Shown piece by piece: positions 7,132 to 11,607 of a stretch of DNA of 64,000 nt. The stretch's first letter is position 1, and every line of letters starts with the position of its first letter. Position numbers and translations under genes: made by a program. Origin of the DNA: Thermococcus sp. (lineage in GTDB: Archaea; Methanobacteriota_B; Thermococci; Thermococcales; Thermococcaceae). The stretch spans positions 1 through 64,000 of the forward strand of contig JALTBN010000027.1 in NCBI GenBank assembly GCA_027075325.1, given 5' to 3'. Under the pieces are notes generated by a model that ran no database searches, was not told the origin of the DNA, and saw only the letters and a list, made by a program, of their open reading frames with translations.

Positions 7132-8487
7132 ATGGCCGTTCATCCCATAGATTACAGGTACGGGAGCGAGGAGATGAGGAAAATATGGGACGAAGAGAAC
7201 AAACTCCAAAAGCTTCTCGATGTCGAGGCCGCACTGGCGAGGGCCCACGCGAAGGTTGGAAACATACCCGAGGAGAGCGCCCGCGTTATTTCCGAGAGAG
7301 CCAGCACGGAATGGGTTAAACTTGAGCGCGTCAAGGAGATAGAAGCCGAGATACACCACGACATAATGGCCGTTGTCAAGGCCTTGAGCGAGGTCTGCGG
7401 GGAGCACGGGAAGTACGTCCACCTCGGTGCAACTTCTAACGACATAATAGACACCGCCAACGCGCTCCTCATAAAGGAGAGCCTTGAAATGGTTGAAAAA
7501 GACCTCAAAAAACTCCGCTCTCTTCTGAAGGAGCTCGCCAAAAGACACAAGTACACGGTCTGCATTGGCAGAACCCACGGGCAGCACGCGATTCCGACTA
7601 CATATGGGATGAAGTTCGCGATATGGCTCGACGAGGTTCAGAGGCACATCGACAGGCTTAACGAGCTTAGGGAGAGGGTTCTCGTCGGCCAGATGAGCGG
7701 CGCCGTTGGGACGATGGCGAGCTTCGGGGAGAAGGGCCTTGAGATACAGAGGCTCGTCATGGAAGACCTTGGACTAAAGCCAGCGAGGATAAGCAACCAG
7801 ATCATCCAGAGGGACGTTTACGCAGAGCTGATGGCCTTCCTGGCCCTCGTTGCTTCCACCCTCGACAAGATCGCCCTCGAAATTAGAAACCTCCAGAGAA
7901 CCGAAATCCTGGAGGTCAGCGAGCCCTTTGGCGAGAGGCAGGTGGGTTCCTCAACGATGCCCCACAAGAGGAATCCCGTGAGGAGCGAGAAGGTGAGTGG
8001 TCTGGCGAGGGTTCTCTACTCCAACGTGATTCCGGCTTTGTTGAACAATCCACTCTGGCACGAGAGGGACCTGACTAACTCCTCGGTGGAGAGGGTTATC
8101 CTTCCCGAGAGCTTCGTTCTCATTGATGAGATGCTGAAGAACACAATAAAGGTCCTTAGAGGTCTTGAGTTCTTCCCGAAGAACATAGAGCGCAACCTCT
8201 ACATGACAAACAACCTGATAATGGCCGAGCCTTTGATGCTCAAGCTCGCCGAGAAGGGCATGGGGAGGCAGGAAGCGCACGAACTCGTTAGGAGGCTTGC
8301 TATGAAGGCCTTCCGCGAGGGGAGGGACCTCCTTGAGGTCGTGAGGGAGAGCGAGGAAGTTAGAGAATTCCTCAGCGATGAGGATCTTGCCTCGCTAAAG
8401 CCAGAGAACTACATTGGGCTGGCGCCGCAGATAGTGGATAACGTAATTGCCTTTATAGAGAAGAAAGAGCGCGAAGAAGACAGTTAA
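7132..8487 (+). CDS. purB: Adenylosuccinate lyase
   Basis: A 451-residue lyase of the fumarase/aspartase superfamily. It cleaves SAICAR and adenylosuccinate in purine synthesis. The superfamily signature GSSTMPHKRNP is near residue 275, GRTHGQHAIPTTYG near 145 and HLGATSNDI near 102. Length is normal. A TATA-like GGGTTTAAAATTG lies about 30-40 nt before the ATG at 7132. A short GGTGATA sits 5 nt upstream of the start. It is the last gene before the large gene-free island. Confidence 0.95.
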   Translation: MAVHPIDYRYGSEEMRKIWDEENKLQKLLDVEAALARAHAKVGNIPEESARVISERASTEWVKLERVKEIEAEIHHDIMAVVKALSEVCGEHGKYVHLGATSNDIIDTANALLIKESLEMVEKDLKKLRSLLKELAKRHKYTVCIGRTHGQHAIPTTYGMKFAIWLDEVQRHIDRLNELRERVLVGQMSGAVGTMASFGEKGLEIQRLVMEDLGLKPARISNQIIQRDVYAELMAFLALVASTLDKIALEIRNLQRTEILEVSEPFGERQVGSSTMPHKRNPVRSEKVSGLARVLYSNVIPALLNNPLWHERDLTNSSVERVILPESFVLIDEMLKNTIKVLRGLEFFPKNIERNLYMTNNLIMAEPLMLKLAEKGMGRQEAHELVRRLAMKAFREGRDLLEVVRESEEVREFLSDEDLASLKPENYIGLAPQIVDNVIAFIEKKEREEDS

Positions 8488-8508
8488 AGGCTTTAATGCC
8501 TTTTTCTG
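8486..8508 (+). terminator. Hairpin plus T-run after purB
   Basis: AAAGGC (8486-8491), a 6-nt loop and GCCTTT (8498-8503) form a 6-bp hairpin running into TTT and then pyrimidine-rich sequence to about 8545. This looks like an intrinsic terminator overlapping the purB stop codon. Archaeal termination needs mainly the T-run. Confidence 0.5.
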
Positions 8509-10140
8509 GCTTTCTCCTTCTCTTTTACCTGCTCTATTTTCATGTGCGGATCGACCCTCAAATTTTTCAGTGAATTTTAACTTTTTTATATTTTGATAAA
8601 ATTACTTTTAATAAATCTAATTTTTATATATCTTAATTAATTGATATTAATATATTTTTAAACATTGATATAATTGCTTAGATTAAAGAGTGTTAGAATC
8701 ACTAACAATAATATTAACCTTTTTTGATTTTTAACTGTACTATACAGTAATGTTAGCACAATGTACATGGTTATTTAGAATGGATGGAGTCATTGATGGA
8801 TCCGAAACAAGAATCACATGAACCTTTTCAGGATACAGGCCTTTGAACTATGAGATCGGGCATATTCATCACAAAATCCAGTTACAATTAAAGGTAGTTA
8901 TGATGCGGTTGGCACGTGCCGGTGGGGAATGTTCAACAAGTACCCACCATGACAAAGCTGTGTGTGGATGATGATATTGCAACCAAGTTATCCTCTTTAA
9001 GCTCGCAGTAGGATATTCCTCTGGATACTCTCAGTTCGACTGAAGCAGCGGCAACATATATAGGTTTAGACCCCCACGACACTAAGCAGCCCTCCGAGTA
9101 GACTTTTGTGATGGGTACTTAAGGACTACTCTTATACAACCTGCATCCTCAAACACTGGGGCCGCGAGATACAATAGAAACACTGCCTCTTTTGTGTATA
9201 TAGATGTGCATAAGATTTGGATATAATGTACCTTATATCTAATTATCAAGAACATAAAAGTACACTAAACGGGCTCATGAGAGGGGTGTGAGCTCGAAAG
9301 GCGATTGCAGCGATCTGGGCTCTGCTAAACAAGAGCCCACTTACTATGGGTCTAATTGGTCAACTAAAGATAGCTGGTAAGACGGGAGATCCTCATTCCC
9401 TGCCGGTTAGGAGGTGAGGATCTTGTATCTCCAGTCAAATCTGAGGATCACTTTTTGAGGCCTCTTAGAGCTTCACCGGTCTGATAGAGGTCCAAGTGAA
9501 ATACTAACCTGTTTTTGGGCAACTAACGTGTTCCCATAGAAGCTGAGCTTTTGCCGCCCCCGGGGCCGGCGTATGGGGATAGAACACACGTCGCTTTTAA
9601 AGAGTTCCTATCCCGTGTCCCCCCCAAGCTTAGTTATTCTCAGTGGATGCTCTCCTGTGGCGGTACTCCGCGGCTCACAGGGGTTGCTGAGAATACCTGT
9701 TTTTAGTGTGCGCCTGCTCACCCTATGACTACCGTTAATAGTACACAAATTTTGGTGCTGAGAGCCGAGTATATTCATGACAATTTTGTTCCTTTTTGAT
9801 ATGTGTCTATGCCTGTACCTATTGGCACCCTTGGGATACTTCTTACGATAAGTTCTACTAATATAACTTTAAATATTAAAAAATTATGATTTTTTAATAT
9901 TTTAATTTTTAATAAAAAATAAAATTTTTTATATTTAATTTTATACTAAATTATTTTATATTTTTTATTTTTGTTTTAAAGTAATTTTATATATTATATA
10001 ACAAGTATTAAAAATACTTTTATTTAAAGTAACAATTCGCTGTATTTTCTGTGAGATGCATCGGAGGATGATATTAGGGCGACCTAACTAAAAATTTTCC
10101 AATATATTGAATACATTATAAATAACATGATTAAAAAGAG
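8509..10140. other. 1.6-kb gene-free island with AT-rich borders
   Basis: No frame on either strand holds a plausible gene. Both borders are extremely AT-rich: 9901-9960 contains one G/C in 60 bases, and 8581-8640 five. AAAATTACTTT at 8598-8608 recurs inverted at 9978-9988. The interior (about 8690-9850) has near-normal composition and many inverted repeats: TGTTAG/CTAACA (8691-8707), ACTGTA/TACAGT (8734-8748), GGTGGG/CCCACC (8921-8948), TCAGT/ACTGA (9031-9043), GATATAA/TTATATC (9220-9239), and the dense set at 9255-9750 listed separately. No rRNA, tRNA, RNase P, SRP or CRISPR signature was recognised. The pyk promoter lies at its right end. Confidence 0.8.
9255..9750 (+). ncRNA. Candidate large structured RNA of unknown class
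   Basis: Perfect or near-perfect stems follow one another: 9270-9277/9289-9296; 9316-9323/9332-9339 (TGGGCTCT/AGAGCCCA, loop 8); 9387-9395/9415-9423 (AGATCCTCA/TGAGGATCT); 9553-9570 (all G/C); 9576-9585/9604-9614 (one bulge); and a nested hairpin 9635-9643/9687-9695 enclosing 9654-9659/9676-9681 and GCGG-TACT-CCGC. Possible closing pairs are GTAC 9260-9263 with 9741-9744 and AACGG 9268-9272 with CCGTT 9732-9736. The strand is a guess; the stems are nearly symmetric. TATA-like sequences occur at 9054-9061 and 9196-9202. Modest G+C for a hyperthermophile RNA argues against it, so a DNA element remains possible. Confidence 0.4.
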
Positions 10141-10182
10141 TTAAATCAAATGAGCTAGATATAGAAAGCCGGTGAGAGAACC
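10090..10182 (+). promoter_or_regulatory. pyk promoter region
   Basis: The A/T-rich stretch holds TATA-like elements (AATATATTG near 10100, TTATAAATAA near 10115) upstream of pyk, and a GGTGAGAG ribosome-binding site ends 5 nt before the ATG at 10183. The Thermococcales glycolytic motif TATCAC-N5-GTGATA is not present. Confidence 0.4.
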
Positions 10183-11607
10183 ATGAGGTTACCATCGCAC
10201 AAGACAAAAATCGTTGCCACTATCGGGCCGGCCTCAGATGATTCCAAAACGCTGGAAGCTCTGATAAAAGCAGGGATGAGTGTTGCCAGGATAAACTTCT
10301 CGCACGGCACGTTTGAGGAGCACAAAAAGAGGATTGAAAGAATAAGAAGGGTCTCGGAACGCCTCGGCCGCAGGGTCGCGATACTGGGTGACCTCCCAGG
10401 GGTTAAGATAAGGGTAGGGGATATCATCGGAGGGAAGGTCGAGCTCCGGCGCAACCAGACCGTGACCCTGACTGTGAGGGACGTTGAGGGGATGGAGGGT
10501 CTGATCCCCGTAGAGTTTAAGGACTTTCCAAAACTTGTCTCCCCGGGCGATGTTATCTACCTCAGTGATGGCTTCATCGTTCTCAAAGTCGTCAAGGTTG
10601 AGGGGACCGATGTTGTTTGTAAAGTTGTAGCCGGTGGGATGCTCTACTCCCACAAGGGCATCAACATACCAAACGCGAGGATCCCGATGGAGGCCGTAAC
10701 GAAGAGGGACCTTGAGATCCTTGAGTTCATGGCTGAAAACGGTGTGGATGCCGTCGGAATAAGCTTCGTGGGCTCAGCATATGATGTTCTCAAGGTCAGG
10801 CATTTCCTTGAAAAGCAGGGCGCCAGGATGTTCGTGATTTCAAAGATAGAACGGCCCGATGCCATCAGGAACTTCGACGAGATACTTTCGGCCTCGGATG
10901 GTGTGATGATAGCTAGGGGGGATCTCGGCGTCGAGATGCCCATTGAGAAGCTCCCCATCCTCCAGAAGAGGCTTATAGGAAAGGTTATGATGGCAGGGAA
11001 GTCGGTTATAGTGGCCACCCAGATGCTTGAGAGCATGACGACCGAGAAACTCCCCACCAGGGCCGAGGTCACGGACGTTGCAAACGCTATACTGGACGGA
11101 GCCGATGCTGTTATGCTCTCCGAGGAGACCGCCGTTGGTAAGTACCCCGTCGACGCTGTCAGGATGATGACGAAGATAGCCCGGGCCACCGAGTCGTACA
11201 GGGAGGGCTTTGGCAACGTGAGGATGCTTGAGTGGAAGGAGAAGATCCCGAAGAGGGGTACCATAAAGGACGCCATTACGAGGAGCATAATAGAGGCCCT
11301 GCAGGTTGTGGATGCCAAGTACATCCTGACCCCCACTAAAAACGGGTACACCGCTCGCCTGATCTCCCGTTTCAGGCCGAGGCAGTGGATACTCGCGTTC
11401 ACGAGCGATGAGAAAGTGGCCAACGGGCTGATGTTCAGCTATGGAGTGTATCCATTCGTCGTTGAGAGCCACGACGAGAACGAGATAATCCGTCTGATTA
11501 AAGGCCTCGGCCTTGCCAAGGAAGACGACACCGTGCTCCTGACCAAGGGGGCACCGGTTGGGAAGACCGTGGGGACGAACACCGTGAGAATCTTCCAGAT
11601 TCCATGA
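10183..11607 (+). CDS. pyk: Pyruvate kinase
   Basis: A 474-residue pyruvate kinase, converting phosphoenolpyruvate and ADP to pyruvate and ATP. It begins with the typical KTKIVATIGPASDD. The metal/substrate segments ISKIERPDAIRNFDEI (near residue 220) and MIARGDLGVEMP (near 243), and the TQMLESM...PTRAEVTDVANAILDGADAVMLS block (near 280) are intact. The C-terminal domain (about 350-474) is present at normal length. In Thermococcales it works beside PEP synthase and ADP-dependent kinases. It stands alone between the gene-free island and the convergent cysS, with T-rich sequence after the stop. Confidence 0.96.
   Translation: MRLPSHKTKIVATIGPASDDSKTLEALIKAGMSVARINFSHGTFEEHKKRIERIRRVSERLGRRVAILGDLPGVKIRVGDIIGGKVELRRNQTVTLTVRDVEGMEGLIPVEFKDFPKLVSPGDVIYLSDGFIVLKVVKVEGTDVVCKVVAGGMLYSHKGINIPNARIPMEAVTKRDLEILEFMAENGVDAVGISFVGSAYDVLKVRHFLEKQGARMFVISKIERPDAIRNFDEILSASDGVMIARGDLGVEMPIEKLPILQKRLIGKVMMAGKSVIVATQMLESMTTEKLPTRAEVTDVANAILDGADAVMLSEETAVGKYPVDAVRMMTKIARATESYREGFGNVRMLEWKEKIPKRGTIKDAITRSIIEALQVVDAKYILTPTKNGYTARLISRFRPRQWILAFTSDEKVANGLMFSYGVYPFVVESHDENEIIRLIKGLGLAKEDDTVLLTKGAPVGKTVGTNTVRIFQIP

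What the first reader, a model, noticed from the sequence alone, without database searches (positions are those of the whole stretch)
8509..10140. 1.6-kb gene-free island with structured interior and AT-rich walls
In a genome packed to overlaps, 1.6 kb without a gene is exceptional. Both walls are nearly pure A/T (one G/C in 9901-9960), while the interior has mixed composition and a dense set of hairpins. The walls carry AAAATTACTTT in inverted orientation (8598-8608 and 9978-9988). It matches no known rRNA, RNase P, SRP, CRISPR or origin signature that I can recognise. It could be a large undescribed RNA, a chromosome-architecture or partition site, or the remains of a mobile element.
Basis: partly seen in the sequence, partly recalled or inferred. 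Interest (0 to 1): 0.85.

Follow-up and report, generated by a model that had tools for sequence, protein, structure and literature searches.

The report
Archaeal chromosome dif-site island
The 1.7-kb gene-free stretch is the place where this heat-loving archaeon (Thermococcus) separates joined daughter chromosomes (the XerA/dif site), and it has a conserved layout, two flanking DNA elements found almost nowhere else in the genome plus two very AT-rich walls, that I found described nowhere in the papers I could read.

Summary
The island (8488-10182) is by far the largest gene-free stretch in the window (next 352 bp), and its two AT walls hold every 60-bp window with four or fewer G/C. It is not an RNA gene, a decayed element or an artefact. 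At its centre (9216-9243) is a 28-bp archaeal dif site (11-6-11), the XerA site for resolving chromosome dimers. The pattern was found in 80 of 94 family genomes, nearly always one good copy, and two of four genomes checked among the rest hold a diverged site. XerA, TrmBL2 and SMC genes are present.
Beyond the published dif site, 60 relatives reveal a fixed layout: purB | A - AT wall - (B) - E - spacer - dif - spacer - E' - AT wall - A' | next gene. A (34-64 bp) is an inverted pair about 720 bp either side of dif (29 of 29 islands with both). E (48 bp) lies 210-690 bp from dif. In whole-genome searches nearly all hits to both elements fall in dif islands. RNA covariation and coding tests are negative. 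Best reading: a reserved dif platform, insulated by inward-facing A elements and AT walls that probably carry TrmBL2 filaments. The factors binding A and E are unknown.

The parts
8488..10182 (.). gene-free dif island between purB (7132-8487) and pyk (10183-11607)
   Evidence: no ORF of 100 aa or more in 1695 bp, next gap 352 bp; neighbours by Pfam; islands of mostly 0.9-2.2 kb at dif in the same genus, though some ORF-based estimates are much shorter
8525..8587 (-). element A, left copy, read into the island from the purB side; outer edge a median 54 bp after the purB stop across relatives
   Evidence: R2 model hit 8530-8586, E 1.2e-10
8582..8666 (.). left AT wall
   Evidence: 60-bp windows with 4 or fewer G/C; wall minimum lies between E and A in 47 of 47 half-islands
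8697..8760 (+). element B (about 65 bp), on the purB side, usually single
   Evidence: profile hits in 34 islands
8853..8900 (+). element E, left copy (AGATCGGGC..CAAAATCCAGTTACAATTAAAGGTAGT)
   Evidence: R1 hit E 1.2e-11; alignment A1
9205..9254 (.). extended palindrome: outer arms TGTGC (9205-9209) and GAACA (9250-9254) around dif
   Evidence: column frequencies of 60 aligned sites, TGTNC/GNACA at -25..-21 and +20..+24
9216..9243 (+). dif site TTTGGATATAA-TGTACC-TTATATCTAAT, XerA recombination site
   Evidence: 11-6-11 palindrome, one good copy in this genome, close to the tested P. abyssi dif (PMC2958812)
9726..9766 (-). element E, right copy, inverted and diverged
   Evidence: R1 hit E 9.2e-6
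9853..10016 (.). right AT wall, minimum 1 G/C in 60
   Evidence: aligned GC profile of the genus
10024..10086 (+). element A, right copy, with the TTAGGGCGACCTA tail
   Evidence: R2 hit E 1.9e-9; alignment A2

Best explanation
The island is the chromosome-dimer-resolution locus of a Thermococcus chromosome. SHOWN: a XerA-type dif site at its centre, in a reserved and mostly gene-free interval framed by conserved, locus-specific elements (A outside the AT walls as an inverted pair, E inside, B on the purB side) and by two AT walls. INFERRED: XerA binds the dif arms, perhaps helped by the extended TGTNC/GNACA arms, and recombines two dif copies of a dimer at the end of replication. The AT walls carry TrmBL2-type stiff filaments that act as roadblocks to SMC, making a chromosomal boundary at dif. 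The A elements, U-rich and reading inward from both flanking genes, end transcription and/or nucleate or limit the wall filament. E binds an unidentified factor that positions or activates the dif complex, since archaea lack FtsK. My estimates: dif identity about 0.97; insulated platform or boundary function about 0.55; the particular roles of A and E about 0.3.
For: dif: 11-6-11 palindrome matching the P. abyssi oligonucleotide that bound XerA; found in 80 of 94 family genomes, nearly always one good copy. In 18 Thermococcus genomes taken as complete it lies 110-153 degrees from orc1/cdc6, against 120-142 degrees for the published Thermococcales sites. XerA gene over its cut-off, 300.6 against 220 bits. 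Layout: A inverted in 29 of 29 islands with both copies, median positions -716 and +736; AT minimum between E and A in 47 of 47 half-islands; AT dips near 500-800 bp on both sides in the averaged GC profile. Specificity: whole-genome hits of the E and A models fall nearly all in dif islands. Protein side: TrmBL2 ortholog, PDB 5bpd E 1.7e-141; SMC 1186.6 bits. TrmBL2 forms stiff filaments and its recruitment basis is poorly understood.
Against: No occupancy, Hi-C or RNA data here; the paper linking TrmBL2, SMC and dif in T. kodakarensis is recalled from memory and is not in the library. E orientation is not fixed: 10 of 14 islands with both copies are inverted, 4 are not. The genus-g5 islands carry ORFs between the A copies, one of them an RsmB/F methyltransferase, so being gene-free is not obligatory. 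Pyrococcus-type genomes have dif in shorter intervals and essentially lack A and E, so neither is needed for Xer/dif as such. 29 of 29 inverted A pairs may trace to one ancestral event.
Confidence: 0.72

Rival explanations
1. A is mainly a dedicated transcription terminator that stops read-through from purB (and from the convergent DUF134 gene on the other side in most genomes) into dif; the walls are by-products of U-rich terminator DNA, and the island has no architectural role beyond staying untranscribed.
For: A starts a median 54 bp after the purB stop, is U-rich when read inward, and A' ends about 76 bp from the stop of a convergent DUF134 gene in most genomes.
Against: A has almost no copies outside dif islands, unlike a general terminator; its most conserved columns are not only T-tracts; A' is kept in this window and in L038, L068 and L076 although pyk reads away from the island there; walls are longer than terminators need to be.
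Confidence: 0.25
2. The island is a large structured non-coding RNA.
For: Intergenic, with some hairpins at 9220-9489.
Against: No Rfam match near a gathering score; mean folding z near 0 in 47 islands; covariation term +0.53; most interior tiles find no relative at all.
Confidence: 0.03
3. The A pair are terminal inverted repeats of a dead mobile element that once inserted at dif.
For: A is an inverted pair at the island ends.
Against: Essentially one island per genome, beside purB in 47 of the 61 dif regions compared; no long ORF in this island; no match in the plasmid or phage collections; left and right copies are distinct conserved subclasses.
Confidence: 0.04

Closest known systems
Archaeal XerA/dif system (Cortez et al. 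2010, PMC2958812)
   Same: 28-bp 11-6-11 palindrome, one per chromosome, terminus-side position, conserved AT-rich flanks of about 23 bp, XerA present
   Different: the retrieved passages mention only the short flanks; the A, B and E elements, the AT walls and the reserved 1-2 kb island are not mentioned there
TrmBL2-dependent SMC boundary at dif in Thermococcus kodakarensis (2025 report, recalled from memory, not in the library)
   Same: dif-centred locus with AT-rich DNA; TrmBL2 and SMC encoded in this genome
   Different: no occupancy or Hi-C data here; I cannot say whether that work noted the A and E elements
Bacterial dif with KOPS/FtsK, and Ter/Tus or MatP/matS terminus systems
   Same: terminus-side recombination site accompanied by flanking cis elements
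   Different: one island with mostly one or two copies of each element close to dif, not dispersed sites; archaea lack FtsK (PMC2958812)

Membership tests
Archaeal Xer/dif site | 28 bp, 11-bp imperfect inverted repeats, 6-bp spacer | tested here: met
   9216-9243 TTTGGATATAA-TGTACC-TTATATCTAAT
Archaeal Xer/dif site | sequence close to known Thermococcales dif | tested here: met
   P. abyssi ATTGGATATAATCGGCCTTATATCTAAA in PMC2958812; pattern in 80 of 94 family genomes, including this exact P. abyssi sequence in G064
Archaeal Xer/dif site | single copy per chromosome | tested here: met
   one place in G000 and in most genomes at up to 2 mismatches; second places are mostly poorer matches
Archaeal Xer/dif site | terminus-side location | tested here: met
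   110-153 degrees from orc1/cdc6 in 18 relatives taken as complete; this genome is in 135 contigs, so it was not tested in it directly
Archaeal Xer/dif site | XerA encoded in the genome | tested here: met
   G000:C51:225119-225901, NF040815, 300.6 bits against a cut-off of 220
Archaeal Xer/dif site | binding and strand exchange by XerA | not testable with these tools
   needs EMSA and recombination assay
TrmBL2/SMC chromosomal boundary at dif | TrmBL2 and SMC present | tested here: met
TrmBL2/SMC chromosomal boundary at dif | TrmBL2 occupancy and Hi-C boundary | not testable with these tools
   needs ChIP-seq and Hi-C; AT walls are present
Structured non-coding RNA | covarying conserved helices | tested here: not met
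   covariation term +0.53, 5 of 44 pairs with double changes, 6 sequences; folding z near 0 in 47 islands
Mobile element remnant | transposase or integrase, multiple copies, variable site | tested here: not met
   no long ORF in the island, essentially one island per genome, mostly beside purB
Replication origin (oriC) | adjacent orc1/cdc6 | tested here: not met
   orc1 over its cut-off is on contig C60, the island on C27

The most novel reading that the evidence does not exclude
Thermococcus carries a composite cis 'dif platform' in which A and E are binding sites for dedicated, still unknown factors that insulate the locus from transcription and SMC traffic and control XerA recombination without FtsK: an archaeal counterpart, built on different parts, of bacterial terminus-organising systems.
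Probability: 0.4. Interest if true: 0.75.

Novelty: new variant of a known kind. Interest (0 to 1): 0.52.

Why it matters
How archaea, which have XerA but no FtsK, confine dimer resolution to the right place is open, as is what recruits TrmBL2 to particular short regions (PMC11894787 calls its basis poorly understood). Two conserved, nearly locus-exclusive DNA elements with defined positions around dif give concrete targets: deletion, inversion and pull-down of A and E could test both questions in genetically tractable Thermococcus strains.

Tried and rejected
Rfam scan of the region: nothing near a gathering score. Plasmid and phage collections: no match. RNA folding and covariation: negative. 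Coding: longest island ORF no longer than shuffled, and indels in the conserved left block are mostly not multiples of three. E and A as versions of one motif: best profile match not significant, p 0.12-0.24. Strict mirror symmetry of E: 4 of 14 islands with both copies have E in the same orientation. Two first-pass scripts were faulty: one search stopped on a key error, and the dif profile failed so its 'dif' rows repeat the E hits; one search replaced it. Part of the left block first looked like a 292-bp conserved element, but across the genus mainly its E core (and the separate B element) is kept. Four genomes matched at E or A without the dif pattern were looked at: G030 and G057 hold a diverged dif (14 of 18 pattern bases) between their A copies, while G035 and G055 contigs end close to A and show no dif; most of the other genomes without the pattern were not individually examined.

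Full report
The sequence. The interval 8488-10182 has no ORF of 100 aa or more; the next longest such gap in the 64 kb is 352 bp. It lies between purB (adenylosuccinate lyase) and pyk (pyruvate kinase). The longest ORF inside is 57 aa, less than shuffled sequence gives on average. All 60-bp windows of the 64 kb with four or fewer G/C are in two walls, 8582-8666 and 9853-10016. The inverted AAAATTACTTT pair is present as stated.

The core. A search of the genus showed short conserved blocks in the island. The most conserved one is a 28-bp palindrome at 9216-9243, TTTGGATATAA-TGTACC-TTATATCTAAT. It has the form of the archaeal dif site: the published P. abyssi oligonucleotide is ATTGGATATAATCGGCCTTATATCTAAA, which bound XerA (PMC2958812), and the same exact site appears in genome G064. 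The pattern is found in 80 of 94 genomes of the family. Some genomes have a second place at one or two mismatches, mostly poor matches; the printed list was cut short, so I did not inspect every one. Of the 14 genomes without the pattern or with only an off-site match, I looked at several: G030 and G057 have a diverged dif between their A copies, and the fetched contigs of G035 and G055 end near element A without showing a dif. Most of the others were not individually examined, and several are incomplete assemblies. In 18 Thermococcus genomes that I took as complete, dif lies 110-153 degrees from orc1/cdc6; Cortez et al. give 120-142 degrees for their Thermococcales sites. The window's genome encodes XerA over the family cut-off, a TrmBL2 ortholog and SMC.

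The layout. I aligned dif regions from 60 other genomes and the window. purB is next to dif in 47 of these 61 regions, its 3' end facing dif; pyk is on the other side in only nine, and in most of the genus the neighbour there is a convergent DUF134 gene. Estimated gene-free lengths around dif in the genus are mostly 0.9-2.2 kb, but some ORF-based estimates are far shorter because spurious or inserted ORFs overlap the island. The averaged GC profile shows a dip near 500-800 bp on both sides of dif. Iterated profile searches found two repeated elements. E, about 48 bp, has 58 hits in 43 islands and lies 208-690 bp from dif, apart from one displaced copy at 1.2 kb. A, about 34 bp with a 64-bp extended form, has 67-74 hits in 42-45 islands, a median 716 bp to the left and 736 bp to the right of dif. 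In the 47 purB-oriented islands, 29 have both A copies and all 29 are inverted; the lowest-GC point lies between E and A in 47 of 47 half-islands where both are found. E is inverted in 10 of the 14 islands with both copies. The left A begins a median 54 bp after the purB stop. Left and right A copies are separate subclasses: the right copies carry a TTAGG..CCTA tail that most left ones lack. B is a third element, found in 34 islands. A caveat: the profiles were trained on these islands, so their recovery there is expected; the order, orientation and wall position were not built in.

Specificity. Sequence-only models of E and A were searched in 94 whole genomes. By their coordinates, nearly all hits lie in the dif island, including those in genus g5 (dif confirmed between the A copies). 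A few weak hits, such as G068 and one in G025, lie elsewhere, and a few hits are on contigs too short to show a dif (G024, G035, G042, G045, G055 and one in G049). The Pyrococcus-type genomes (g3) and g4 essentially lack both elements, and their dif sites mostly lie in shorter gaps. The g5 islands carry ORFs between the A copies, one an RsmB/F rRNA methyltransferase.

The dif site itself is wider than 28 bp. Across 60 aligned sites, TGTNC at -25..-21 and GNACA at +20..+24 are enriched. Cortez et al. had noted conserved AT-rich flanks of about 23 bp.

What it is not. Most tiles of the spacers between E and dif, and between dif and E', find no relative outside the window, and the six-sequence alignment of the left block gives no covariation support. 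Folding is not above chance across 47 islands; the window's own 9220-9489 is an exception on both strands and reads as local inverted repeats in the DNA. Indels in the left block are mostly of 1, 2, 4 or 5 bp, against coding. No plasmid or phage match was found.

Mechanism. Shown: the dif site, the layout, its near-exclusive location and the presence of the XerA, TrmBL2 and SMC genes. Inferred: XerA resolves dimers here; TrmBL2, which forms stiff filaments (PMC4877046), coats the AT walls and blocks SMC, giving a boundary; A insulates the island from transcription or nucleates the wall. The link of TrmBL2 and SMC to dif in T. kodakarensis is from memory and could not be checked in the library. 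Genome G012 has the contig length I remember for T. kodakarensis KOD1, which is unverified; its island has both A copies, both walls and one E.

Verdict. The core is a known kind of site. The composite platform around it is, as far as the papers I could read go, undescribed. I rate it a new variant of a known kind with moderate interest.

Noticed in passing
L171-L176 (genus g5 islands): In this genus the A copies are 2.8-3.6 kb apart and enclose dif plus ORFs; the 465-aa one tested is an RsmB/F rRNA methyltransferase, and the smaller ones tested had no Pfam match.
   Followed up: partly
dif spacer in 47 purB-oriented islands: The spacer points one way relative to purB in 20 islands and the other way in 27, so its direction is not fixed. 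The cause was not examined.
   Followed up: no
right side of the island in most Thermococcus genomes: A 118-aa DUF134 (sigma-70 region 4-like HTH) gene faces dif with its stop about 76 bp from A'; whether it binds A or E is untested.
   Followed up: partly
L055 (G023) and L058 (G027): The island looks interrupted: a 626-aa ORF ends about 100 bp from dif in L055, and a 262-aa ORF lies beside dif in L058 with one E copy displaced to 1.2 kb.
   Followed up: no
G000:C14:15129-15899, G000:C15:9341-10027 and G000:C124:168-560: Three further tyrosine-recombinase-like hits below the XerA cut-off in the same genome, possibly integrases.
   Followed up: no
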